Origin: Planctomycetia bacterium
GTDB taxonomy: Bacteria > Planctomycetota > Planctomycetia > Pirellulales > PNKZ01
Reading direction: 5' to 3'
Length of the DNA stretch: 64,000 nt
Assembly (NCBI GenBank): GCA_021413845.1
Contig: JAIOPP010000006.1
Span: 186,001-250,000, forward strand
The position numbers and the translations under genes are program-made. Position 1 is the stretch's first letter. Each line of letters starts with the position of its first letter. Below the pieces are notes generated by a model, which worked only from the letters and a program-made list of their open reading frames with translations, had not been told where the DNA came from and did not search any database. Of this stretch, positions 3,231 through 64,000 are shown in pieces.

Positions 3231-6200
3231 ACGCTTTCTCATCGGACCCGACCTCGTCGCCTGAAGAGCGCTTAGAGCGCGTCTTGGCGGAGTATCTCCG
3301 TCAGGTCGAGGCCGGCATCGAGGTCGATCGCCAAGCGCTCATCGCAGCGCATCCGGAATTGGCCGACGATCTACAGTCGTTCTTCCGCAACCACGACGAG
3401 ATCGAGCGGCTCGCGAAGCCGCTCCGCAGGGGCTCGTCTTCCTCGGGCGACGATCCTACGGTCGGGCTCGTCGAGACTCCGAACGTCGAAGACCATCGCG
3501 TGCGCTACTTCGGCGACTATGAACTGCTGGCCGAAATCGCTCGCGGCGGCATGGGGGTCGTCTATAAGGCTCGGCAGTTGTCGTTGAATCGGCTCGTCGC
3601 TTTGAAGATGATCCTCGCCGGACAATTTGCTTCGAAAGCCGACGTCGATCGCTTTCAGCAAGAGGCCGAGCATGCGGCCAACCTCGATCATCCGAATATC
3701 GTGCCGATCTATGAAATCGGCGTCCATGAAGGCCGACATTATTTCAGCATGAAGCTGATCGAGGGGAGCAATCTCCGCAGCGAACTTCCGCGCTTGCAAA
3801 AAGATCTGACGGTCGGCATTCGCTTGATGTCCGAAGCGGCTCGTGCCGTGCATCATGCACATCAGCGGGGCGTGCTGCATCGCGATCTCAAGCCGAACAA
3901 CATCTTGATCGATCGCGACGGCGAACCCCATATCACCGATTTCGGTCTTGCCAGGCGCGTCGAAGGAGACAGCGACCTCACGCAATCGGGCGCGATCGTC
4001 GGCACGCCGAGCTACATGGCCCCGGAACAAGCCCGAGGGGAAAAACAGCTTTCGACGGCGGCCGATGTCTATAGTTTAGGTGCGATCCTTTATGAGTTGC
4101 TCGCCGGTCGGCCGCCGTTCAAAGCGGCGACCCCGATGGAAACGATCGTGCAGGTTGTTTCGCAAGATCCCGAACGCCCAAGCACGACGTTGCATCGGAT
4201 CGATCGCGACTTGGAGACGACCGCGCTGAAGTGCCTCGAGAAAGATCCGCGACGCCGCTACGACTCAGCGGCGGCGCTCGCCGACGATTTGGATCGCTGG
4301 CTCCGCGGTGAACCGATTCTCGCGCGACCCGTCGGCCGCTGGGAACGGACGGCGCGCTGGTGCCGCCGCAATCCGCTCATCGCCGGGCTCACGGCGACGG
4401 TCGCCGTGTCGCTGGTGCTGGGCATGCTCGTGTCGTCATACTTCGCTGCCGCGGCCCGGCGTAGCGCCGAGGAAGCTCGACATGAGCAGTTGCGGGCCGA
4501 GGCGAATGCCGACTTGGCACAGCAACAAAAACTTCGGGCCGATCTCAAAGCGGACGCTGCACTGCAGGCGTCGAATATGCTGTTGGCGGAAAAAGTACTC
4601 GGCGATCGGAGCCTCTATGCGGCGCGGATGAACCTCGTGCAGCGGAATTGGGAAGCGCATCGAATGCGCGAAGTGCTGGAAGGATTAGGGCGGCCGTCGC
4701 GCATCGATCCGCTGGAATGGAGCACGGAGCAATTGCGAGCCGGCCTGCTGCCCCCTCCGCGCCGCGATTTGCGCGGCTTCGAATGGTTTTATTGGGAGCG
4801 ACGCTTTCACTCGGAGCGATTGAATCTCAAAGAGCCTCTCGCTCCGAGTGCTCATCCCTCCGGCGCGCGGGCCGTGGCCTTCAGTCCCAACGGTTTGAAG
4901 ATCGCCACCGGGGGCGACGACCGCTTGCTCAAGCTTTGGAATGCGAGCGATGGGCGGTTATTGCATTCCCTACGCGGCCATAAAGACTCGCTCAACCACG
5001 TCGCTTTTAGTGCCGACGGAACGCGCGTGGTTTCGGCCGGCGGCGCGGCCGATGGTGTTAAAGTTTGGGACGTTGCCACCGGCAAGCTCTTGAACACCTT
5101 CGTCGTAAGCAGCGGCGAAATCAAGCTTGTCCCTTGGCAGGTTGCCTTTCATCCCGACGGCTCGCGCTTGGCCGTCGCATCGTACGACGAATCGATCCGT
5201 GTTTGGGATCTCGCGACCGGTAAGGAACTACCGTCGCTGAATGCCCATGCCGGCGGCTTCTCGTCGCTGGCTTATAGCCCTGAAGGGAAACATCTCGCGG
5301 CGGGGAGCTTCGAGCGTGGGACGATCACCCTCTGGGACGCAACCGACGGCAAACTACTTCAAACACTCGAAGGGCATCAAGGCAAAGTCGCCGATGTCGA
5401 GTTCAGCTCCGACGGCACCCGACTTGCCTCGGCCGGTTGGGACAAGACCGTACGCTTATGGAATGTCGCCGACGGAAAACAATTGAACGTATTCAAGCGG
5501 CATACGGACTTTGTTCACGGCGTGGCGTTCAGTCCCAACGGTAAGCGGCTTGCTTCCGGTGGGCAAGATGCGACCGCGTGCATCTGGGATCTCCCGAACG
5601 GCGGTAACGAACTGCTTATTCAAGGTGGGATCTACGCCGTCTCCGGGATCTCCTTTTCGCCCGACGGAGCGCATCTGGCGACGGCGCACCTCGACGGCGA
5701 TGTGAAGATTTGGGACGCCGCTCTAGGCCAAGAGTCGCGCGTATTGGCCGAGGAACCGAACGCGCCACTCTCATGCGTGGCGTGTAGCCCGAACTCTCAA
5801 TGGATCGCCACGGCCGGCAGCGGTTCGATCGTGAACGTGTGGAACCGCAAGCAAGAACGGGTGCATCGCTTCACAGGGCATGTCGGTCGCATTACGTCGG
5901 TCGTGTTTAGCCCCGACGACCGCTATGTCGTCTCCGCCGGAAATGATCGCACGATTCGGGTATGGGATCTCGCGTCGGGTAAACAGAAGGCCGTTTGGAA
6001 CGGACACAAGCTTCCGATCAACAGCATCGCGCTGAGCGCCGACGGCCGCTGGCTGGCCTCGGCGGCCGGCGACCCCTTTCGTCGCGGTGAGCCTAGCGAA
6101 TCGCAAGCCGAGCTGAAGCTTTGGGATTTCGCCACCGGTAACGAAGTCCGAAACTTGATCGGTCACAAACAGGCGGTGGTCTCGGTTGCTTTTCGTTCCG

Positions 6201-6646
6201 ACGGCAAGCAACTCGCGTCCATCGGTGCCGACGAGAGCGGCGTTATGCTTTGGGACACGATCAACGGGAGCGGAATGAAGACGCCGGCGGTTCCGAACAA
6301 AGCGCTGCACAGCGTCACCTATAGTCCCGATGGTCGGCAGCTCGCCGTGTCGTCGCAAGACGGCACGGCGCAAATTTTCGACATCGAAAGCGGCCGACTG
6401 CTGTGGACGCTCGACGGACATGCCGCTTCCGTTCTTTCCGTCGCGTATAGTCCCGACGGCCGCCGACTGGCGACTGCCGGCCGCGATAAGACCGTTCGAC
6501 TTTGGGACGTCGACTCCGGTCAAGAGGTGCTGACCCTCTCAGGACATACGGGTCCGGTCAGCGCCGTGGTTTTCAGCGCGGATGGCAATCGCCTGATCTC
6601 GGCCGGCCACGACGGCGCGGCAAGAATCTGGGAGGCGACGCGCTAA
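3227..6646 (+). CDS. Membrane Ser/Thr protein kinase with C-terminal WD40 repeats
   Basis: The start at 3227 overlaps the sigma factor stop and gives 1139 residues; the frame is open further upstream, but that part lies inside the sigma gene. Order of parts: N-terminal helical segment (about 1-60); Hanks-type kinase domain with glycine loop AEIARGGMGVVYKA (about 102-115), VALKM lysine (about 127), HRDLKPNNIL (218-227), DFGLA (238-242) and GTPSYMAPEQARG; one transmembrane helix at about 384-406; a coiled-coil-like linker; then WD40 repeats from about 530 to the end (repeated PDGxxLA and xxWD signatures). The catalytic residues are intact. The kinase would sit in the cytoplasm with the propellers across the membrane. 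Immediately upstream is its probable partner sigma factor. Confidence 0.93.
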   Translation: MNAFSSDPTSSPEERLERVLAEYLRQVEAGIEVDRQALIAAHPELADDLQSFFRNHDEIERLAKPLRRGSSSSGDDPTVGLVETPNVEDHRVRYFGDYELLAEIARGGMGVVYKARQLSLNRLVALKMILAGQFASKADVDRFQQEAEHAANLDHPNIVPIYEIGVHEGRHYFSMKLIEGSNLRSELPRLQKDLTVGIRLMSEAARAVHHAHQRGVLHRDLKPNNILIDRDGEPHITDFGLARRVEGDSDLTQSGAIVGTPSYMAPEQARGEKQLSTAADVYSLGAILYELLAGRPPFKAATPMETIVQVVSQDPERPSTTLHRIDRDLETTALKCLEKDPRRRYDSAAALADDLDRWLRGEPILARPVGRWERTARWCRRNPLIAGLTATVAVSLVLGMLVSSYFAAAARRSAEEARHEQLRAEANADLAQQQKLRADLKADAALQASNMLLAEKVLGDRSLYAARMNLVQRNWEAHRMREVLEGLGRPSRIDPLEWSTEQLRAGLLPPPRRDLRGFEWFYWERRFHSERLNLKEPLAPSAHPSGARAVAFSPNGLKIATGGDDRLLKLWNASDGRLLHSLRGHKDSLNHVAFSADGTRVVSAGGAADGVKVWDVATGKLLNTFVVSSGEIKLVPWQVAFHPDGSRLAVASYDESIRVWDLATGKELPSLNAHAGGFSSLAYSPEGKHLAAGSFERGTITLWDATDGKLLQTLEGHQGKVADVEFSSDGTRLASAGWDKTVRLWNVADGKQLNVFKRHTDFVHGVAFSPNGKRLASGGQDATACIWDLPNGGNELLIQGGIYAVSGISFSPDGAHLATAHLDGDVKIWDAALGQESRVLAEEPNAPLSCVACSPNSQWIATAGSGSIVNVWNRKQERVHRFTGHVGRITSVVFSPDDRYVVSAGNDRTIRVWDLASGKQKAVWNGHKLPINSIALSADGRWLASAAGDPFRRGEPSESQAELKLWDFATGNEVRNLIGHKQAVVSVAFRSDGKQLASIGADESGVMLWDTINGSGMKTPAVPNKALHSVTYSPDGRQLAVSSQDGTAQIFDIESGRLLWTLDGHAASVLSVAYSPDGRRLATAGRDKTVRLWDVDSGQEVLTLSGHTGPVSAVVFSADGNRLISAGHDGAARIWEATR

Positions 6647-6653
6647 ATGAAAG

Positions 6654-6677
6654 CGCCGGCGACGGCCGTCGTCGGCG
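6654..6677 (+). terminator. GC-rich stem-loop after kinase gene
   Basis: Starting 8 bases after the kinase stop, CGCCGGCGACG and CGTCGTCGGCG pair over 11 positions with one G-T wobble around GC. There is no T-tract, so it is a terminator-like structure, not a classical intrinsic terminator. A TAGAAT sequence, possibly a -10 box for the next gene, follows at about 6680. Confidence 0.4.
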
Positions 6678-6744
6678 TGTAGAATGGCGGGCATCGAATT
6701 CTCTTCACGGTTACGCAGACACCGAGCTCGGAGCCTGTAGTGTG

Positions 6745-9700
6745 ATGCCCGATCCGTTCCGCTTTTCGCTCGCGCTATTTACGGCCCTCGTCTGTTCCGC
6801 GGCGCGCGCAGACGATGCGTTCCAATCGACGATTCAACCTCTGCTGCGCGAATACTGCGTCGGTTGTCATTCGACGAAGCTACAGAAAGGGGAACTGGAT
6901 TTAGAGCAGTTCAAGTCTGCCGCAGACGTAGCCAAGCAACCGAAGATTTGGGAAGGAGTGCTCGAGCAACTTGCGAGCGGGGAAATGCCGCCGAAAGATC
7001 AGCCGCAGTTGCCGGCCGATCGGAAGACGAAGCTCGCATCGTGGACCCAAGCGAAGCTGGACGAGATCGCGTTGGCGAATGCCGGAGACCCGGGCGCGGT
7101 CGTGCTACGGCGGTTGTCCAATGTCGAATACACCTATTCGCTTCGCGATTTGACGGGCGTCGAGTCGCTCGACCCGGCGAAGGAGTTCCCGATCGACGGG
7201 GCGGCGGGCGAGGGCTTTACCAATGCAGGCGCAGCGCTCGTCATGTCGCCGGCTCTGTTGACCAAATATCTCGACTCGGCCAAGGGGATCGCGGAGCACG
7301 CCGTCTTGCTGCCGAATGGAATCCGTTTTTCCTCCACGACGAGCCCGCGCGATTGGACGGACGAGAGCTTGGCGAAGATCCGCGAGTTCTATGCGCGGTT
7401 TAGTACGACCGGCGGCGCCTCGTCGGTGAATCTTCAGGGAGTCAAATTCGATACGAACGCCGGCGGTCGGCTGCCGCTTGAGAAGTCGTTAGCCGTGCTG
7501 CTCGCCGAACGAACCGCGCTCGCCGGCGGCACTAAGAGCATCGCCGACGTAGCTCGCGAACACGGCTTGAACGCGAAGTATCTCGGCCTGTTGTGGGCCA
7601 TGCTTCACGACACCAAACCCTCGCTGCTGCTCGACTCGCTCCGCCTGAAATGGCGCGCGGGAACACTTACGGCCACGGATATCGAAGCTTGGCAGCAATC
7701 GCTGTGGCGGTTCGCCAGCGTCGGACATATCGGTAAGAAGAACGGACCCAAGGGCTGGCAAGAGCCCGTTAATCCGCTTGGTTCGCAACATGAAATCAGG
7801 TGGAAGCCGGCCGTTCCCGCCGGCGGCGGCGACCTGACTTTGTATCTCTCCGCCGGCGATGCGGGAGACGGAAACGAAAACGACTTCGCCGTTTGGGAGA
7901 ATGCCAGGCTCGTAGCGCCGGGTCGCGCAGATCTTCCCTTGCGCGACGTTCGCGCGATGGCACGCCGACTTGCCCAGCGCCGCGAAGCTGTGATTGCGAG
8001 CACCGCGAAATGCCTTGCCGCCGCCGCGGAAGCCGACGCTTCGCACACGCGCACGGATACGGCAAAACTAGCGCAGACCCACGGTGTCGAGCCCGAGCTG
8101 CTGGCGGGTTGGCTCGACTACCTCGGCATCGGCTCCTCGGGCTCCGTGAAACTCGGAGCGTTGCTTGTGAAGAAGATTCAGGCATCGCCCGAATATGCTT
8201 TCGTGCAAGGTTGGTCGGGGGCCGATGCTCTTTCCGTGACCGCAAACTCGTCGGACGTTTCCGTCCGCGTTCCCGGCACGATGAAACCGCATGGCGTGGC
8301 CGCTCATCCGTCGCCCAAGCTGGCCGTGGTCATCGCTTGGCGCAGCCCCACGGCAGCTACGCTGCGCATCGGCGGCAGCGTGCAAGACGCGCATCCGGAG
8401 TGCGGCAACGGGGTCACCTGGGCACTCGAGGTGCGTCGTGGTCATTCGCGCGAGCAATTGGCCGCCGGCGTGACCAAAGGGGCGACGTTGATCGACATGG
8501 GACGTTTCGAAAACGTTCGCGTGTTGCCCGGAGATGTCGTCGCCGTGGTCATCGGGCCGCGCGATGGGAGTCACGTCTGCGATCTCACCGCGATCGACCT
8601 CGCCTTGCACGATGGAACCCGAGAATGGAATCTTGCGAAAGACATCGCACCGAACATCCTGGCCGGCAATCCCCACGACGACGGTCATGGCAACAAGGAC
8701 GTATGGCATTTCTTCGGGGAACCGCCGACGGCCGGTTCGACTTCTACCGTGCCCGGCGGTTCGTTGCTGGCGAAATGGCGCAGATCCGAGCATGGCGCGG
8801 AACGACAACGGCTTGCGCAGCAGCTGGAGCAACTGTTGCGGCAAGGAATGCCTGCGAAAGTTCTCGGCGAAGCGGACTCGCCGGATCGCGTCCTCTACGA
8901 TCAGCTGCTCGCGTTCAACGGTCCAGTGCTCTCTGCGGCGCTTCGTGCGACGGAGGTGCATTCGGATGCCGGCCCGGACTCTCCTTACGGGCTCGATCCC
9001 GCGTTGTTCGGCAAGCAGATGAACGGCAAGCATCCCGGCGGCAGCAGCGTCGATCCGCTGAGCCTGTATGTGAAGGCCCCTGCCGTGATCGAGGTGCGAT
9101 TGCCGGCCGCGCTCGTCGAAGGGGCGGAGTTAGTCGTCAACGGCAAGCTGCATCCCGTAGACGGCAAGGAGGGGAGCGTGCAGATGCAGGTCTCGACGAC
9201 GAAGCCCGAGCGGCTGTCGGAGATCGCAGCGACCAAAGCCGAGACGAAGTCGGTCAACGGTGCGTGGTCGGACAACAACCTGCGTACCAGCTACGGGGCT
9301 CAGGTGATCGTGAACGACGGCAGCGCTGCGCGGCAGCGCTTCGAAGCGGCTTTCGAGGATTTCCGCCGCTTGTTTCCCGCCGCGCTGTGCTACACGAAGA
9401 TCGTGCCGGTGGATGAAGTGGTGACGCTCACGCTCTTCCATCGCGAAGACGAGCAATTGAAACGCCTGATGCTCGACGACGCTCAAGCGGCCGAGTTGGA
9501 TCGGCTGTGGGACGATCTCCTCTTCGTCAGCGAGGCTCCGCTGAAGCAAGTGGATGTGTTCGAGCAGCTGTACCAGTTCGCTACGCAAGATGCGAACCCG
9601 GCCGCTTTCGAGCCGCTGCGAGAACCGATCTTACGCGCAGCCGAGGCCTTTAAGAAACGGGGCGTGGAAGTCGAGCCGAAGCAATTGCAAGCGGTGCTTG

Positions 9701-10935
9701 AGTTTGCCGCGCAATCTTGGCGGCGTCCGCTGACGAGCTCGGAGCTCGGCGAGTTACGCGGGCTTTACCACAAGCTCCGCAAACAAGAACTGTCGCACGC
9801 CACGGCCCTGCGCATGTTGATCGCGCGGGTCATCGTCGCGCCGGCGTTCTTATATCGCGGCGAGAGCGCGGCGCCGGGCCTGAAGGCTGCGCCGGTGAAC
9901 GATTGGGAATTGGCGACGCGGTTGAGCTATTTTCTGTGGTCGAGCGCTCCGGATCAAGAACTTCGCTCGCTCGCGGCGGCCGGGACTCTGCACCAGCCGG
10001 ACGTTCTCCTCGCGCAAGCGCGCCGCATGCTTAAAGATCCCAAGGCACGCCGGCTGGCGACGGAGTTCGGTTGCCAGTGGCTCCATGTGCGAGATCTCGA
10101 AACGCTCGACGAAAAAAGCGAGCGCCATTTTCCGACCTTCGTAGCGCTGCGCGGCGACATGCAGGAAGAAGCCGTTCGCTTCTTTATGGACTTATTTCAA
10201 GCCGATCGTTCCGTGTTGTCGCTACTCGATGCCGACCATGGCTTCATAAACGGCGCGCTCGCAAAACACTACGGCATCGACGTCAAGTCGAACGACTGGC
10301 AACGCGTCGAGGGCTTACGCGCGCGAGGTCGCGGCGGCATCCTCGGTTTCGCCAGTACGCTGGCGAAGCAAAGCGGCGCATCGCGCACCAGCCCGATTCT
10401 GCGCGGCAATTGGCTGAGCGAAGTCGTGCTCGGCGAGAAGCTACCGCGTCCGCCGAAAGACGTGCCGCTGCTGCCCGAGGAAACGCCCGCGGGGCTCACC
10501 GAACGCCAGTTGATCGAGCGGCATAGCAGCGATGCGAAATGCGCGGTTTGCCACAAGCGGATCGACCCGTTCGGCTTTGCGCTCGAGGGCTTCGACGCGA
10601 TCGGCCGCGCCCGCGATAAGGATTCCGCCGGGTTGCCGATCGACACGGCTGCGAAGCTGGCCAATGGTACGCAATTCGACGGGCTCGAAGGGCTTCGTAA
10701 GTATCTGCTCGAGCAGCGCCGCGAGGATTTTCTCCGTCAGTTTTGCCGCAAGCTCCTCGGCTATGCGCTCGGTCGCAGCGTGCAGCTTTCCGATAAACCG
10801 CTGTTGGAAACGATGCTCGCTCGCTTGAAAGCCGATGAGTATAAAGTCGGTATCGCGATCGAGCTGGTCGTCGGGAGCCCGCAGTTTCGGGAAGTCCGCG
10901 GCCGAGAGTTCGTCGCCGATCATTCGTCTCAGTAA
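6745..10935 (+). CDS. Large planctomycete cytochrome-c-like protein, DUF1587/1592/1588/1585 (PSD type)
   Basis: A 1396-residue exported protein. The ATG at 6745 starts a clear signal peptide (about 1-22); the upstream frame overlaps the kinase end and was rejected. After the signal comes a planctomycete cytochrome-c motif, CVGCH at residues 38-42, followed by GEMPP. The C-terminal half carries the DUF1592 and DUF1588 blocks (WELATRLSYFLWSSAPD; LRGNWLSEVVLGEKLPRPP) and a second CAVCHKRIDPFGFALEGFD motif (about 1266-1284), then a DUF1585-like tail. Between them lies an extra several-hundred-residue region containing beta-rich sequence (DLTLYLSAGDAGDGNENDF) absent from the paralogue at 28747-31269. 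The DUF1552 gene follows after 25 bases; this pairing is typical of planctomycetes. Biochemical function is unknown; a redox or polysaccharide-related role is usually supposed. Confidence 0.92.
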   Translation: MPDPFRFSLALFTALVCSAARADDAFQSTIQPLLREYCVGCHSTKLQKGELDLEQFKSAADVAKQPKIWEGVLEQLASGEMPPKDQPQLPADRKTKLASWTQAKLDEIALANAGDPGAVVLRRLSNVEYTYSLRDLTGVESLDPAKEFPIDGAAGEGFTNAGAALVMSPALLTKYLDSAKGIAEHAVLLPNGIRFSSTTSPRDWTDESLAKIREFYARFSTTGGASSVNLQGVKFDTNAGGRLPLEKSLAVLLAERTALAGGTKSIADVAREHGLNAKYLGLLWAMLHDTKPSLLLDSLRLKWRAGTLTATDIEAWQQSLWRFASVGHIGKKNGPKGWQEPVNPLGSQHEIRWKPAVPAGGGDLTLYLSAGDAGDGNENDFAVWENARLVAPGRADLPLRDVRAMARRLAQRREAVIASTAKCLAAAAEADASHTRTDTAKLAQTHGVEPELLAGWLDYLGIGSSGSVKLGALLVKKIQASPEYAFVQGWSGADALSVTANSSDVSVRVPGTMKPHGVAAHPSPKLAVVIAWRSPTAATLRIGGSVQDAHPECGNGVTWALEVRRGHSREQLAAGVTKGATLIDMGRFENVRVLPGDVVAVVIGPRDGSHVCDLTAIDLALHDGTREWNLAKDIAPNILAGNPHDDGHGNKDVWHFFGEPPTAGSTSTVPGGSLLAKWRRSEHGAERQRLAQQLEQLLRQGMPAKVLGEADSPDRVLYDQLLAFNGPVLSAALRATEVHSDAGPDSPYGLDPALFGKQMNGKHPGGSSVDPLSLYVKAPAVIEVRLPAALVEGAELVVNGKLHPVDGKEGSVQMQVSTTKPERLSEIAATKAETKSVNGAWSDNNLRTSYGAQVIVNDGSAARQRFEAAFEDFRRLFPAALCYTKIVPVDEVVTLTLFHREDEQLKRLMLDDAQAAELDRLWDDLLFVSEAPLKQVDVFEQLYQFATQDANPAAFEPLREPILRAAEAFKKRGVEVEPKQLQAVLEFAAQSWRRPLTSSELGELRGLYHKLRKQELSHATALRMLIARVIVAPAFLYRGESAAPGLKAAPVNDWELATRLSYFLWSSAPDQELRSLAAAGTLHQPDVLLAQARRMLKDPKARRLATEFGCQWLHVRDLETLDEKSERHFPTFVALRGDMQEEAVRFFMDLFQADRSVLSLLDADHGFINGALAKHYGIDVKSNDWQRVEGLRARGRGGILGFASTLAKQSGASRTSPILRGNWLSEVVLGEKLPRPPKDVPLLPEETPAGLTERQLIERHSSDAKCAVCHKRIDPFGFALEGFDAIGRARDKDSAGLPIDTAAKLANGTQFDGLEGLRKYLLEQRREDFLRQFCRKLLGYALGRSVQLSDKPLLETMLARLKADEYKVGIAIELVVGSPQFREVRGREFVADHSSQ

Positions 10936-58569: not shown

Positions 58570-58765
58570 GACGAGTCGTTGCTTATCACGAAGCAGAACG
58601 ATGGGCTCGAACTCAAGGGCCGGCGTCTTGCCGTTGGGGGAAAGCCCGAGGAACCGCATGACCATCGCGACCTTGGCGTAGGTCGCCGCCGCCGGTCATC
58701 AATGAGCCGCGCTGCCCATGTGGGCAGGTTACTTAAGTCGTCATATCGACTGAACTTCCAACCAG
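58570..58765. other. Region between kdpE and the tRNA fragment
   Basis: No gene recognised. A small palindrome CTGCCCATGTGGGCAG (58712-58727) could help end the kdp transcript, 143 bases after the stop. The sequence next to the tRNA fragment should be the original chromosome flank of the tRNA gene. Confidence 0.4.
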
Positions 58766-58810
58766 AGCGGGTGATGGGGATCGAACCCACGACAGCAGCG
58801 TTGGGAACGC
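58766..58810 (-). pseudogene. 3' fragment of tRNA-Gly(CCC): probable attachment-site remnant
   Basis: On the minus strand the sequence reads as a tRNA from the middle of the anticodon stem to the discriminator base: loop TTCCCAA with anticodon CCC (58803-58805), 3' stem CGCTG, a 5-base variable loop CTGTC, T-arm GTGGG-TTCGATC-CCCAT fully paired (one G-T), acceptor strand CACCCGC, then T. The matching 5' half (GCGGGTG start, D-arm) is not found upstream on this strand. Partial tRNAs of exactly this extent are typical of the far end (attR-like) of elements that integrate into tRNA genes. A diverged complete tRNA is much less likely. Confidence 0.75.
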
Positions 58811-59289
58811 GATTTAATAATCGCTGTTCAGCTTAAGAAAACCCGTAGTTTCCCGAGTGCGGGGGAATTCTACACACATCATCGACCATTGCAAAACATT
58901 TCATTCAATTTCATTACTGCTCGGCGAAAGAGCGTACGTACAGGTTTCACCCTGTACCGTACAGGATCTGTTCGACGATGCGATTTGAAAGCGTTCGGCC
59001 CTGCGATACGAAGACTGCCCCCAACGCTCGCGGAACGTTCGGAGGCAGACCGACCTCGGCCAACGTCGTCGGACGACGTGAGCGTGGACGTGAGGCGACG
59101 AGGCGCGGGAACGAGCGACGATCGAACGACGCGGCACGGGCGACATGACGCGACGGGTAGGCCGCCGGGGTGGCCCCCAAATGAAACGCGCGTGGCCGGT
59201 GTTGTAGCTACCCTTCGCACTTTTTATCCGTTAAGAAAAGGTAAGCGCAGGATTCGCACCGCTCGACCTTCCATGCCGCGGAGATCTTC
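58811..59289. other. Non-coding stretch at the presumed island edge
   Basis: No gene with convincing features. It holds the hairpin GCGAT-TTAATA-ATCGC (58809-58824) at the edge of the tRNA fragment, the GTACAGG repeat cluster at 58938-58965, and an AT-richer stretch near 58870-58925. An open frame at 58889-59329 is low-complexity and Arg/Ser-rich, probably not a gene. Confidence 0.5.
58938..58965. repeat. Triple GTACAGG repeat (inverted plus direct)
   Basis: GTACAGG (58938-58944), CCTGTAC (58951-58957) and GTACAGG (58959-58965) lie within 28 bases, giving one 7-bp inverted repeat with a 6-base spacer and one direct copy. This arrangement suits binding of a dimeric protein such as a repressor or recombinase. 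Confidence 0.5.
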
Positions 59290-59475: not shown

Positions 59476-59556
59476 TTGCACTTAGACCGGAGTTCGGCAC
59501 GGCGCGCGACGTGTCCCGCGTCCAATCGCTTGCGGCGGCTTGCTACAATGCGGAGC

Positions 59557-60345
59557 ATGAGCCGTTCACTCTCCCGACTACTGAACCGGATGAAGCGCGG
59601 CCGCGCTGCGGCGCCACCCTTTGATCGCCGGCGGCAGACGGGCATCTGTTTCTTTTACGGGCTCGGCGACGCTGACGCATTCCGCGATCGGCTGCGCAAC
59701 GTACTGGTCGGGATTGTCCGGTCTCGGCTGGCGGTCGACGATCCGGCCTCGGCCACTCGGCCGCTGCTCAAACGCCCCGGTTGGCGACGGACCATGCGCA
59801 CGCTGGAACCGGGCGACGTCGTGTTCCTGATCGATGCAATCGCCCTGGGCCCGACGTGGCGGTTGCACGATCGAACCTTCGAGCAGATGGCGAAGCTGAA
59901 GGCCCGGGTCGTCGTCGTCTTGTCCGATCACTCGACGATCGATCTTTCGGCCGGGCCCGGTAATGACGAGCTCGAACGCATTCGGCAGGAAGCGCTCGAC
60001 GAATACCATCGACAACGGATCCGCGACGGCTTGGCCGTAGCTCGAGCAGCGGGCAAGCGTGTAGGTCGACCGCCGTTCGGTTGGCCGTGTCGCGATGGGC
60101 AAGTTGTTCCGCCGGCTGCGGACCTGGAGACGATCGGCGAAATCTGCCGCCGGGTCGAGCACCACGAGACGCTCCGAGCGATTCACGCGGACTTGCTTTG
60201 TCGCAGGATCCGGCGTGCCGACGGCGAGCGCTGGACGCTGCCCGCGGTGAGTGCGGCGTTTCGATACGGCATCGGTCTCGGCTGGGCCTCGCGCCGGCGA
60301 CGGCCGTGGGACTTCGTGAAGGGCCGCGTCGCGTGCCGGGCGTGA
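59557..60345 (+). CDS. Serine-recombinase-like protein with degenerate catalytic domain
   Basis: From the ATG at 59557 (another at 59548) the product has 262 residues. Its middle and C-terminal parts match the resolvase/invertase family: LEPGDVVFLIDAIALGP aligns with the strand before the catalytic Arg pair, DEYHRQRIRDGLAVARAAGK with the long helix, and RVGRPPFGW with the linker to the DNA-binding domain, followed by a short helical domain. The N-terminus (TGICFFYGLGDADAF) stands where YxRxSxxxQ with the nucleophile Ser should be, and DRLxR is replaced by DAIALG. It is therefore probably not a working recombinase by the known mechanism. A TGCTACAAT (-10-like) sequence is just upstream. It lies 0.75 kb from the tRNA fragment, which suggests a mobile element. 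Confidence 0.75.
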   Translation: MSRSLSRLLNRMKRGRAAAPPFDRRRQTGICFFYGLGDADAFRDRLRNVLVGIVRSRLAVDDPASATRPLLKRPGWRRTMRTLEPGDVVFLIDAIALGPTWRLHDRTFEQMAKLKARVVVVLSDHSTIDLSAGPGNDELERIRQEALDEYHRQRIRDGLAVARAAGKRVGRPPFGWPCRDGQVVPPAADLETIGEICRRVEHHETLRAIHADLLCRRIRRADGERWTLPAVSAAFRYGIGLGWASRRRRPWDFVKGRVACRA

Positions 60346-60586
60346 TCCCGGCGCCTTCGGGAATGCTGCCATTATAGAGACTGCCAACGAGTCCATGAAG
60401 AACGCCGCAGACACCAAATTGCGGCGGGCCACTTGATTCAAAATCTTCACTCGGCTCCAACGTCGGCTCCGGATACATACGGCCGATTCTTAATAAATGC
60501 GTCTCGATATATCTTGCGGTTTATCGTCGCATTACAATTTCCATCAGACCGAAGATTCGCCTGCGTCTTTGATAAGGACTGCTGCG
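60346..60586. other. Intergenic region upstream of the YD-repeat gene
   Basis: This is 241 bases, AT-richer near 60490-60545, with a TACAAT -10-like hexamer at 60533. It probably holds the promoter of the next gene. Nothing else is seen. Confidence 0.4.
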
Positions 60587-63500
60587 ATGCGACTAGTTGC
60601 CCTTCGTTTCGTCGTTCTGCTCGTCGCTTTGATTGTCGTCGGCTCGTTCACATCGGCGCTGTGCGCTCAGGAACCTCCCGCCGCTGCTTCAGGCGAAGCG
60701 GTGATCCCAGCGATCCTGGGTCGCACGGCTAAGGAGGCTCGAGCCGCTCTCACGGCGGCCGGCTTCGTGACGAAGTTTCAATTGGGAAAGCCGGCGGCTT
60801 CCGCCACGACCGCCTTAACCGTTTATGCAGTCGAGCCCGCAGTAGGACGTTCGTTGCCGCGCGGCTCGGTGGTGCTGATGACGTTGTATGCCGAGGCGAC
60901 TCCGCTCGATCGTTCGTCGCAACTCGCGAACGATGGCCGTGTGCTGCGCTCCGACGCGACGAAGGTTCCGCTACTGATCGGGAAGTCGGCGGCGGAAGCG
61001 AAGGCGGCGCTTAAGGCGGCGGGACTCACAACTAAATTTCTCTTGGGAAATGCCGCCCCTTCGCCTGCGCAAAAATGGATCGTCTACGAGCAGCATCCTC
61101 GACCCGATGCCGCGCTGAAGTTCGGCGAACCAGTGGCGATCGTCGTCTATGCATCGTCCGCGAGTGTGACTAATCCGGAGCTTACGCAGGTTCGGGCATC
61201 GCCGCTCGTCGACGACGGCGAAGCGATCGTCGATGAACGGAGCGGAAGGCTGCTCGTCGCAGCGACCGACCTGCGCATTGCGGCCGGACGTATCTCGCTC
61301 GCCTGGATTCGGACTTGGGACGGAGTCGACTTTGCCGGCTCGCTCGGAGGGGGATGGCGACACAACTGGCAACGCCGACTCGACCGTTCGACCAAGCAAG
61401 CCACGATCTTGTCGTTCACGGGAAGCGTGACGTTCGAAGCGGATGCCGAGGCCGGCGGATACCGTGCAGCATCGGGAGATCGATTGACGAGCGACGGCGA
61501 GCGCTTCGTGTGGACGATGCCTGACGGGACCATCGAACGCTTCGATGCCCAAGGTCGGCTGGTCGAGCGCGACGAGAACGGCAGAGGGAAACTCGACGGC
61601 GGACTCGTCGCGCTCGAATACGACGCCGCAGGGAGACTCGTTCGACTTAACGGACCTTGCCGAACCACGCTCCAGCTTCGATACGATGCGCGCGGTCGTG
61701 TCGTCGCCGTTGAAAGTTCCACGGGGAGCATCGTTCGCTACGGCTACGGTCCCGAAGCAGCGCAGCCGATCGACGAACAAGCTGCAGAATCACTCTCAGT
61801 CGGATATGCGTATGACGCGGCAGGAGCGTTGACTCGGATCGATCATCCGCAATTCGGTACGACCGAGTTCGCTTACGATCCGCAAGGGCGAGTCCGTAGT
61901 CGAACATTCGCGGACGGTACGACCGAGACGTATGCCCGCGACGACGCGACGAAAACACTTCGTAGAACCGACGGCGCAGGACATGATACGACGACCGTGT
62001 GGAGCGTCGATGGTCGCCGTGCCGAGGTGACGGATCCGCTCGGCAACAAGTCCACGCTCGAATACGACGCCGCGGGGCGTGTGACGGCGCTTGCCGGTGC
62101 GACGGGCGTGAGTTTGCGGAACAGCTACGATGCGCAAGGACGGTTGCGCAGCGTGACCGAGCCGGCGACGGGAACGACCCGTTTCGAGTATCTTGGCGAG
62201 TCGTCGCTGGTCGCTGCGATCGTACCGGCCGACGGTCGACGACAGACGATGGAATACGACGATCGACGCCGGCCGACGCGGATCGTCGACTCGTTCGATC
62301 CCGCCAACTCGGCCACGTTCACATACGATGCCGACGGACAAGTCGCTTCGCTCGTTTACGGCAACGGCCGCAAACAATTCTTCATGTACGATGCCTCCGG
62401 CCGGCGCGAGTCGGAGCGCGACGGCGAGGGAAGCGTCCGTCGCTTCGCATACGACGCGCGGGGCAACCCGACTCGCGAAACCGATCCCGCCGGCGGTGTC
62501 ACGCTGAGTACTTACGATGCGCAAGACCGACTGCTCAGCGTTACCGATCCCATGGGCGCCGCCGTTCGTTACCGATATGAGCAGGGAAAAGGCCGACGCG
62601 TCGTTCACGAGACCGATCCACGCGGCGGAACGACGCGAACCACTTTCGATCTGCGCGGGCGAGTGAGCGCCGTTGAGGATCCGAGCGGAGGAGTCGTACG
62701 CTATGCTTATGATCCGGCCGGCAGATTGTCGCAAGAGACCGACGCGCTTGGTCGAGTTTTCCGTTACGAGTACGATGCCGCCGGGCGTCGGACGGTCGAG
62801 ATCGATCCGCTCGGCAGGAAAACGGCGACCGCCTACGACACACAAGGGCGCCCGATTCGGATAACGGTTCCCGACGGGAGTTCGACCTCCTACGAATACT
62901 CGTCGGCCGGTCGGCTTGTGAAAAGTATCGACGCGTCGGGCATCGCGACTACATACGACTACGATGCCACCGGCCGTATGAGCAGCCGCACGGAAGGAAA
63001 GCGGAAGACGAACATCGAATACACCTTGAGCGGCAAACCGCAGCGCATCGTTACGCCGCCAAGCCCAGTCGATACCCGCGAATACGATGAGGCCGGAAAT
63101 CTCATGAGTGTGCGTCGCGGCAATCGGATCGTCGCGACCTATCGCTACGACGGCTCGGGCCGATGCGTTGAAGAGAAGCATCCGACCGGCTTGCGGATGA
63201 GTTACGGATACGATGCGGTAGGCCGCCTCGCAACCAAGAAAAACAATCTCGGCGTCGGCGAGGAGTTCACGTACGACGCCGCCGGACGATTGACGAAATC
63301 AAGCGATGCCGGCGCCTCCGGAACGACGTACGGCTACGATTCGGCGGGCAATCTGCTGAGCGTTACGAATCCTCTCGGCAAGTCGACGCAACGAACGTAC
63401 GACGCGCTGGACCGGCAGATCTCCGTCGCTACACCGGTCGGAGATCAAGCACGCTACGAATACGACGCGGCCGGACGTCTGACGACGGCCTACCATCCGG

Positions 63501-64000
63501 CCGGAGGCAAGACTCAATTCGCTTACGATCCGTTGGACAACGTCGTGAACTCGGTTCGTCCGGACGGCGGCAAAACCGTTTCGTCGTTCGATGCCGCGGG
63601 TCGACGAGCAAGCACGACCGACGCCAAAGGACAAGTTACGAAATACCATTACGACCAAGCAGGGCGGATCGTACGAAAAGAGCTAAGCGACGGAAAGGTC
63701 GTTCACTCTCGGTACGATGCAGTCGGTCGTTTGACGGAACTCGACGACGGCAGTTTTCCGATACGTTACGAATACGACCAAGCCGATCGAGTCGTGCGCA
63801 TCGAGTATCCGACGATAAAGCGCTCGCTCGGGTATGAATATGATCCGGCCGGACGCTTGATTCGCTTCACCGATCCGGCGGGCCGAGTCGTGACGTACGA
63901 ATACGATGAAGCGGATCGGATGACGAGCATTCAGCCGGCCGACGGCGGCGCGATACGATTGAGCTACGACGAAAAGAATCGACGAACGGCGGCTCATTAT
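60587..64000 (+). CDS. Secreted PASTA/YD-repeat (RHS-like) protein, C-terminus beyond the window
   Basis: The frame from the ATG at 60587 is open for 1138 codons to the window edge. A signal peptide (VVLLVALIVVGSFTSALCAQ) is followed by two PASTA-like domains (about 39-102 and 127-189), each with the VPxLIGxxAxEAxxAL...GL pattern. Then comes an RHS-type N-terminal cap (ISLAWIRTWDGVDFAGSLGG; GWRHNWQRRL) and from about residue 310 continuous YD repeats (xxYDAAGRLxxxxxPxG) to the end. RHS/YD proteins build a beta-shell that often encloses a variable C-terminal toxin; the C-terminus and any immunity gene lie outside the window. PASTA domains usually bind peptidoglycan or beta-lactams, an unusual partner here. 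The minus strand shows long but meaningless open frames in the same stretch. Confidence 0.9.
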   Translation, partial: MRLVALRFVVLLVALIVVGSFTSALCAQEPPAAASGEAVIPAILGRTAKEARAALTAAGFVTKFQLGKPAASATTALTVYAVEPAVGRSLPRGSVVLMTLYAEATPLDRSSQLANDGRVLRSDATKVPLLIGKSAAEAKAALKAAGLTTKFLLGNAAPSPAQKWIVYEQHPRPDAALKFGEPVAIVVYASSASVTNPELTQVRASPLVDDGEAIVDERSGRLLVAATDLRIAAGRISLAWIRTWDGVDFAGSLGGGWRHNWQRRLDRSTKQATILSFTGSVTFEADAEAGGYRAASGDRLTSDGERFVWTMPDGTIERFDAQGRLVERDENGRGKLDGGLVALEYDAAGRLVRLNGPCRTTLQLRYDARGRVVAVESSTGSIVRYGYGPEAAQPIDEQAAESLSVGYAYDAAGALTRIDHPQFGTTEFAYDPQGRVRSRTFADGTTETYARDDATKTLRRTDGAGHDTTTVWSVDGRRAEVTDPLGNKSTLEYDAAGRVTALAGATGVSLRNSYDAQGRLRSVTEPATGTTRFEYLGESSLVAAIVPADGRRQTMEYDDRRRPTRIVDSFDPANSATFTYDADGQVASLVYGNGRKQFFMYDASGRRESERDGEGSVRRFAYDARGNPTRETDPAGGVTLSTYDAQDRLLSVTDPMGAAVRYRYEQGKGRRVVHETDPRGGTTRTTFDLRGRVSAVEDPSGGVVRYAYDPAGRLSQETDALGRVFRYEYDAAGRRTVEIDPLGRKTATAYDTQGRPIRITVPDGSSTSYEYSSAGRLVKSIDASGIATTYDYDATGRMSSRTEGKRKTNIEYTLSGKPQRIVTPPSPVDTREYDEAGNLMSVRRGNRIVATYRYDGSGRCVEEKHPTGLRMSYGYDAVGRLATKKNNLGVGEEFTYDAAGRLTKSSDAGASGTTYGYDSAGNLLSVTNPLGKSTQRTYDALDRQISVATPVGDQARYEYDAAGRLTTAYHPAGGKTQFAYDPLDNVVNSVRPDGGKTVSSFDAAGRRASTTDAKGQVTKYHYDQAGRIVRKELSDGKVVHSRYDAVGRLTELDDGSFPIRYEYDQADRVVRIEYPTIKRSLGYEYDPAGRLIRFTDPAGRVVTYEYDEADRMTSIQPADGGAIRLSYDEKNRRTAAHY

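What the first reader, a model, noticed from the sequence alone, without database searches (positions are those of the whole stretch)
60587..64000. YD-repeat (RHS-like) shell protein with two PASTA domains in a presumed island
PASTA domains usually sit on penicillin-binding proteins and PknB-type kinases. Here they precede an RHS-type shell, which could direct a toxin-bearing capsule to peptidoglycan. The position next to a probable attachment site fits a mobile defence or competition gene.
Basis: partly seen in the sequence, partly recalled or inferred. Interest (0 to 1): 0.55.

Follow-up and report, generated by a model that had tools for sequence, protein, structure and literature searches.

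The report
Wall-anchored Rhs cage with dedicated partner
A planctomycete gene encodes an exported protein that joins two wall-binding (PASTA) domains to a hollow Rhs cage with a variable tail, and the few relatives found sit beside the same kind of partner gene, which points to an unusual two-gene version of the bacterial toxin-cage systems.

Summary
The ORF at 60497/60587 runs past the window to 66139 (window numbering continued) and encodes signal peptide – 2 PASTA – Rhs plug – 23 RHS repeats – Rhs core ending in PxxxxDPxG – a 394-residue C-terminal region (CT). Among four members (the window's included) the shell is 38-47% identical while the CT is mostly unalignable, as in polymorphic Rhs toxins. 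The predicted small immunity gene is absent. Instead, 24 bp downstream lies a 670-residue exported protein (beta-barrel, PDZ, ten Sel1 repeats). All four loci have such a gene next door (one cut by a contig end, one in three tandem copies). In 246 genomes of the order, strong full-length barrel-PDZ matches occur only in the three genomes with PASTA-Rhs. The fusion is rare: 3 of 396 genomes of the order, plus one more from a scan of 84,980 species genomes. The attachment-site idea is supported: 46 nt at 58765-58810 duplicate a tRNA-Gly 3' end beside an integrase remnant. No CT toxin fold could be identified, so toxicity is inferred. Most likely: a Sec-exported, peptidoglycan-tethered Rhs cage with variable payload and a dedicated periplasmic PDZ-Sel1 partner; a new variant of the Rhs kind.

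The parts
60587..64000 (+). PASTA-Rhs protein (likelier start Met31 of the 60497 frame); continues beyond the window to 66139 in window numbering (L003:12139)
60587..60667 (+). N-terminal signal peptide (Sec type), by hydrophobicity and AxA-like end; no signal-peptide program was run
   Evidence: sequence read directly; hydropathy
60704..60886 (+). PASTA domain 1
   Evidence: 26.7 bits, cut-off 23.2
60962..61147 (+). PASTA domain 2
   Evidence: 33.8 bits
61232..61411 (+). Rhs N-terminal plug (DUF6531)
   Evidence: 31.9 bits over 24.1
61619..64000 (+). YD/RHS repeat shell, in-window part. Beyond the window: core with PxxxxDPxG at residues 1478-1486 and CT 1487-1880 (L003:10955-12136); then the partner gene PDZ-Sel1 at L003:12164-14176 (= window 66164-68176), 24 bp downstream
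58765..58810 (-). exact 46-nt copy of the 3' end of an intact tRNA-Gly(CCC) on contig C29: attachment-site scar; probable left edge of an integrated element
58595..58684 (-). remnant of a tyrosine integrase gene (90 nt, 80% identical to the int gene beside the intact tRNA-Gly; tblastn E 4e-9)
59476..60345 (+). 289-aa serine-recombinase-like ORF, weak match (21.5 bits, Pfam cut-off 23.3); probably decayed or divergent

Best explanation
A Sec-exported Rhs-type cage tethered to peptidoglycan, working as a two-gene module with a dedicated periplasmic partner. Shown: the domain order, signal-peptide-like N-termini, an intact PxxxxDPxG motif with both aspartate positions, a conserved shell with a divergent CT, and adjacency of a barrel-PDZ gene in the four loci known. 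Inferred: the PASTA domains hold the cage on the producer's own cell wall; the CT is folded in or threaded through the cage and cut free by aspartyl autoproteolysis at DPxG; the variable part of the CT is a payload (toxin-like), followed by a hydrophobic stretch and a tail; the PDZ-Sel1 protein binds the exported protein (possibly its tail) as a chaperone or immunity solenoid. How the payload leaves the envelope is unknown.
For: Domains. Best solved relatives by sequence are Rhs proteins (8h8a, E 5.2e-75; Tre23, Tse15), and the best stretches with two Rhs chains (8qja, 8qjc) and with the TcC chains end at residues 1485-1488, where the CT begins; one teneurin-like chain (9pt5) runs on to 1531. 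PxxxxDPxG in 4 of 4 at the same place, D1456 and D1483 invariant in 4 of 4. Identity to the window protein, in blocks of 100 residues, is 45-53% over 1201-1500 and 14-29% over 1501-1800. CT pairs: 24.6-29.5% identical in five of six; three of these lie within or below their five shuffled controls, two slightly above (29.5 against at most 29.2; 27.8 against at most 25.2). Partner adjacent in 4 of 4 loci, gaps of 16-24 bp in three and 86 or 104 bp in the fourth; the fourth (L098), where only barrel and PDZ are seen before the contig ends, was found through the Rhs protein alone and was not used to build A2. Barrel-PDZ profile A2 in 246 genomes of the order: E <= 4e-79 only in the 3 PASTA-Rhs genomes, next best 2e-23.
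Against: No CT homologue: 1 of 97 genomes, the window's own; no match in plasmids or viral contigs, no credible one in PDB sequences; no Pfam match; AlphaFold model useless, pLDDT 36. So toxicity is unproven. The N-terminal cleavage motif PVxxxxGE and the strict toxin-cleavage motif are absent in 4 of 4. The partner was not seen with the one non-PASTA sister examined, which fits toxin-specific immunity less well than a cage accessory. Only four loci are known. A2 was built from the module's own members, so its gap in E-values is partly by construction.
Confidence: 0.55

Rival explanations
1. Canonical toxin-immunity pair: the CT is an antibacterial toxin and the PDZ-Sel1 protein is its periplasmic immunity protein; the three tandem copies in G220 are an immunity array.
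For: Variable CT after DPxG; three tandem diverged copies in G220 (30.6-45.6% identical in the N-terminal part); repeat-solenoid immunity families (ankyrin, HEAT) are described, also for planctomycetes, in PMC3482391 (passages).
Against: Full-length partners are 670-734 aa and of one architecture while most CTs are unrelated; among the genomes searched it goes with the PASTA form rather than with Rhs in general; no toxin domain recognised.
Confidence: 0.25
2. Not a weapon: a structural or adhesive envelope protein (teneurin-like cage on the planctomycete wall) whose fast-evolving C-terminus is a surface, membrane or partner-binding region.
For: CTs of G220 and L098 share a 100-116 aa tail (44% identity, E 3e-25), with a weak trace in G017 (against L098, E 0.008), and each of the four CTs holds a hydrophobic segment; teneurin-like proteins are among the solved relatives; no toxin fold found; in the other three loci the neighbours read are not of mobile elements.
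Against: Autocleavage motif PxxxxDPxG in 4 of 4 and a sharp identity cliff exactly there, the hallmark of polymorphic toxins; a non-PASTA sister in G220 carries HEAQH in its CT (by eye).
Confidence: 0.25
3. Coincidence of repeats: PASTA-like and Rhs parts brought together in a decaying mobile island without function.
For: Attachment scar, integrase remnant and weak recombinase ORF nearby.
Against: Same architecture and partner in three other genomes, long open frames, conserved motif.
Confidence: 0.03

Closest known systems
Rhs polymorphic toxins (e.g. Rhs1/Tre23 of P. laumondii, Tse15 of A. baumannii)
   Same: YD shell, N-terminal plug, Rhs core, PxxxxDPxG before a variable C-terminal region (motifs from passages of PMC8636562 and PMC11461821)
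   Different: signal peptide plus PASTA instead of T6SS parts; no PVxxxxGE; CT of 310-486 aa with hydrophobic segment and, in two members, a shared tail; large PDZ-Sel1 neighbour instead of a small immunity gene
WapA-type Sec-exported, wall-associated Rhs toxins of Gram-positives
   Same: signal peptide, wall-binding N-terminus, YD repeats, variable C-terminus (domain details of WapA recalled; the S. suis WapA paper PMC12704120 seen only as title and start of abstract in listings)
   Different: PASTA in place of WapA's wall-binding part (recalled); planctomycete; partner is PDZ-Sel1
Polymorphic toxins with N-terminal peptidoglycan- or carbohydrate-binding domains, PMC3482391
   Same: N-terminal SH3 and laminin-G domains proposed to anchor an exported toxin on the producer's wall; LysM and PGB also listed (passages)
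   Different: PASTA is not mentioned in the held text of that paper (0 occurrences in the first 300,000 characters)
HtrA/DegP-family PDZ proteins and Sel1 solenoids
   Same: partner's PDZ resembles HtrA-family PDZ domains
   Different: no protease domain matched; barrel of F1-ATPase/FlgT type by a weak fold match (best E 1.6e-3) plus ten Sel1 repeats

Membership tests
Rhs polymorphic toxin | YD/RHS repeat shell and Rhs-associated core | tested here: met
   RHS_repeat E 5.9e-156, Rhs_assc_core E 1.2e-23; PDB Rhs matches
Rhs polymorphic toxin | PxxxxDPxG cleavage motif with two aspartates | tested here: met
   4 of 4 members; cleavage itself not testable here
Rhs polymorphic toxin | strict motif DP(I/L)GxxGGx5Yx8D(P/S)xG(L/W) | tested here: not met
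   0 of 4 (motif from PMC11461821)
Rhs polymorphic toxin | C-terminal region variable against a conserved shell | tested here: met
   exception: G220 and L098 share a tail
Rhs polymorphic toxin | recognisable or active toxin domain | tested here: inconclusive
   no Pfam match, no credible PDB sequence match, model pLDDT 36; activity not testable here
Rhs polymorphic toxin | small cognate immunity gene next to the CT | tested here: not met
   next gene is 670 aa PDZ-Sel1, 24 bp away
T6SS Rhs effector | PAAR or other T6SS N-terminal domain, PVxxxxGE | tested here: not met
   only PASTA and plug found N-terminally; PVxxxxGE 0 of 4
PASTA-domain Ser/Thr kinase (PknB/Stk1) | kinase domain | tested here: not met
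   no kinase match; NCBIfam PknB_PASTA 31.7 of 450 bits, residues 33-232, that is the PASTA region; PADLOC PD-T4-6 best stretch likewise 20-226
ADP-ribosyltransferase toxin (HYD1-like) | ART profile match | tested here: not met
   no Pfam match for the CT at E <= 10; the HHFTN resemblance is by eye from memory

The most novel reading that the evidence does not exclude
A planctomycete-specific class of envelope weapon: an Rhs cage tethered to peptidoglycan by PASTA domains, whose exported payload is handled by an obligate periplasmic PDZ-Sel1 partner that reads the C-terminal tail by its PDZ domain (G220 and L098 proteins end in -FF; the window's ends in -HH and G017's in -FR, which speaks against a universal rule) and acts as a new solenoid-type immunity or loading factor.
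Probability: 0.25. Interest if true: 0.72.

Novelty: new variant of a known kind. Interest (0 to 1): 0.5.

Why it matters
Rhs toxins are known mostly from T6SS, T7SS and Gram-positive wall export (partly recalled). A Sec-exported Rhs cage with its own peptidoglycan tether in planctomycetes would show another way to display such cages, and the PDZ-Sel1 neighbour gives a concrete, testable partner: a possible new immunity or accessory family. It also gives a handle on antagonism in a phylum where toxin systems are little studied experimentally (own judgement).

Tried and rejected
Kinase or defence reading: rejected, matches confined to the PASTA region. CT homologues: own genome only among 97; none in plasmids or viral contigs; in PDB sequences only two chance-level rows at E 0.64 and 1.6 for the window CT and none for the G017 CT. 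CT fold: one AlphaFold job without an alignment gave pLDDT 36, not used further. ADP-ribosyltransferase idea for the window CT and for G017: by eye only, no profile support. Module on phages, plasmids or viral contigs: none found. Promoters and terminators: at or below chance level. GC3 of the Rhs and partner genes (0.675, 0.671) is at the low end of the window's long frames but inside their range, so no foreign signal is claimed. The last 400 bases of contigs C6 and C29 share no exact stretch of 12 bases or more; that they belong to one element rests on gene order only. kdpE relatives were found in 6 of 6 genomes of the family but their neighbourhoods were not read, so no empty site is shown. 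Several short loci were read on the wrong strand at first; repeated on both strands. The reading of other Rhs loci had the same fault for some and is not used. Literature: searches showed no PASTA-Rhs report in their listings ('PASTA domain' + 'RHS repeat': 2 papers, neither about Rhs toxins by title, not opened; 'PASTA domain' + 'planctomycet': 2 papers, not opened; 'Sel1' + 'PDZ' + 'Rhs': 0); only open-licence papers are held.

Full report
What is there. The frame starting at 60497 continues out of the window; the window is G000:C6:186001-250000 and contig C6 ends at 257210. L003 is C6:240001-257210, so L003 position = window position - 54000. The protein has 1880 residues. Domains: two PASTA, DUF6531 plug, 23 RHS repeats, Rhs-associated core at 1407-1486. 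The closest solved sequences are Rhs proteins, then teneurin-like proteins, TcC and others.

C-terminus. The core ends in P1478-LELV-DPWG. The same PxxxxDPxG stands at the same place in all four members, and both aspartate positions (D1456, D1483) are invariant. In Rhs1 of P. laumondii the corresponding motif carries the catalytic aspartate of autocleavage (PMC8636562, passages), and two aspartates are essential in Tse15 (PMC11461821, passages). The stricter motif quoted in PMC11461821 fits 0 of 4, and the N-terminal motif PVxxxxGE 0 of 4; PASTA therefore probably stays attached to the shell (inference). Identity to the window protein, in blocks of 100 residues, is 45-53% over 1201-1500, 14-29% over 1501-1800 and 25-34% over 1801-1880. 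Shells of the four are 38-47% identical. CTs are 24.6-29.5% identical in five of six pairs: three within or below their five shuffled controls, two slightly above (G000-G220 29.5 against at most 29.2; G017-L098 27.8 against at most 25.2). G220-L098 are 40% identical and share a 100-116 aa tail at E 3e-25; G017 and L098 show a weak trace of it at E 0.008. Each of the four CTs holds a hydrophobic segment. No Pfam match, credible PDB-sequence match or usable fold says what the window's CT does; the motif HHFTN reminded me of ADP-ribosyltransferase toxins, which is recall and not a test.

Partner. 24 bp after the stop lies a 670-aa protein with signal-peptide-like start, PDZ and ten Sel1 repeats. 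An AlphaFold model on six sequences gives a six-stranded barrel, pLDDT by block of ten 65-88 for residues 1-80 of the construct, while the rest, PDZ included, is poor (mean 55). Foldseek ranks F1-ATPase chains, Deg proteases (at rmsd near 19, so not a real superposition) and FlgT, with no match at E <= 0.001, so the barrel's kinship is a hint only.

How rare and how constant. PASTA at all, own genome included: 4 of 97 relatives, 11 of 396 genomes of the order, 54 of 392 of the phylum. Of the 11 in the order, three are PASTA-Rhs: G000 (window), G017 and G220. In the other eight, the PASTA-bearing frames read (within loci of about 3 kb; whole for G006) held 0-1 YD-like motifs. With a profile of PASTA plus plug (A1), the only match covering both parts in 392 phylum genomes was the window's own; likewise 1 of 119 genomes in the family of G220 and 1 of 2 in that of G017, each the known one. 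Only a limited number of candidates per genome is scored (6, up to 20), so misses are possible. A scan of the 84,980-species collection with two peptide patterns gave three loci: the contigs of G220 (L097, Planctomycetaceae bacterium MAG) and G017 (L099, Pirellulales bacterium MAG), recognised by equal contig length, and a new one, L098 (Planctomycetales bacterium MAG). Fusions without these peptides would be missed.

All four loci have a barrel-PDZ gene directly downstream: G000 one, G017 one, G220 three in tandem, all with Sel1 repeats; L098 one, cut by the contig end after the PDZ domain. The barrel-PDZ profile A2 searched in 246 genomes of the order gives full-length matches at E <= 4e-79 only in G000, G017 and G220. 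All 246 genomes have some match, in the listed rows almost always the PDZ part only, from 2e-23 upwards; the list stops near 9e-18, so weaker full-length matches could be hidden. One listed match covers both parts weakly (G187, E 1.5e-21, a frame with PDZ and Sel1 parts of different make-up by eye) and two reach into the barrel part (G125, G192). A2 was built from the three positives, so the gap in E-values is partly by construction; the absence of other strong full-length matches and the independent L098 are the real evidence. In G220, of 22 Rhs-core matches (one below the family's cut-off), the listed full-length partners are all on the contig of the PASTA one. A sister Rhs there with signal-like start but no PASTA (C86) is followed by a 714-aa gene without a Pfam match, so without recognisable Sel1 or PDZ; the sister's CT holds HEAQH by eye and its first 250 residues match no Pfam family.

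Attachment site. Window 58765-58810 equals the last 46 of 73 nt of an intact tRNA-Gly(CCC) at C29:88929-89001. In total 106 aligned bases match at 92%, followed by 90 bp at 80% to the tyrosine integrase gene that follows the intact tRNA; the window's integrase is only a remnant. C29 ends 9.6 kb further with DnaB-like helicase and DnaC-like loader genes, and C6 ends 12.4 kb from the scar with a DnaD-like loader. Gene order and orientation fit one phage-like element with its integrase at tRNA-Gly and the PASTA-Rhs pair near the far end, but the two contig ends share no overlap and the remnant integrase on the outer side of the scar suggests more than one event. No tRNA was found in the loci of the other three; five of their neighbouring genes put to Pfam are a Gfo/Idh oxidoreductase, a 3-keto-disaccharide hydrolase, a PLD-like enzyme, a kinase-nSTAND1-FGE protein and one without match, none of a mobile element. 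So mobility is, as far as read, a feature of this genome, not of the module.

Mechanism. I commit to a Sec-exported cage held on the peptidoglycan by PASTA, with a variable payload cut at DPxG and a dedicated periplasmic partner. Export, tethering, cleavage, payload activity and binding are inferred; architecture, motif, variability and linkage are shown. PMC3482391 proposes wall anchoring of exported toxins by N-terminal binding domains (passages) but does not mention PASTA in its held text. Whether the partner is immunity or accessory stays open: tandem copies favour immunity, linkage to the PASTA form favours accessory.

Verdict. Real, rare, conserved two-gene arrangement; a new variant of the Rhs kind; function unproven.

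Noticed in passing
window 58595-58810: tRNA-Gly 3' end copy plus truncated integrase just after kdpE; the tRNA copy explains the MGIEPTT reading inside the short ORF at 58579-58836.
   Followed up: yes
L135 (G000:C29:88900-98613): Intact tRNA-Gly followed by a 418-aa integrase, further tyrosine-recombinase-like frames (by eye), DnaB-like helicase and DnaC-like loader: an integrated phage-like element.
   Followed up: partly
L003:14640-17210: 342-aa protein without family match (P0004), HTH-like small protein (weak), DnaD-like helicase loader and a further phage-type frame at the contig end.
   Followed up: partly
L138 (G220:C86) 4500-10925: Non-PASTA Rhs sister of 2141 aa with HEAQH in the CT, a hydrophobic stretch and a long tail; no Pfam match for the first 250 CT residues.
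   Followed up: partly
L098:1202-6337: The gene before the L098 PASTA-Rhs encodes a protein kinase - nSTAND1 - FGE fusion, an architecture of the kind seen in conflict systems (recalled).
   Followed up: no
L003:14323-14383: Inverted GGTGCTGTAGCG...CGCTACAGCACC after the partner gene, perhaps a terminator or small mobile repeat (seen by eye).
   Followed up: no
L017 (G230:C1): A PASTA-bearing frame with a start that looks like the partner's barrel (AGVITSVEGTKLGLEIQG...); possible distant use of that domain.
   Followed up: no
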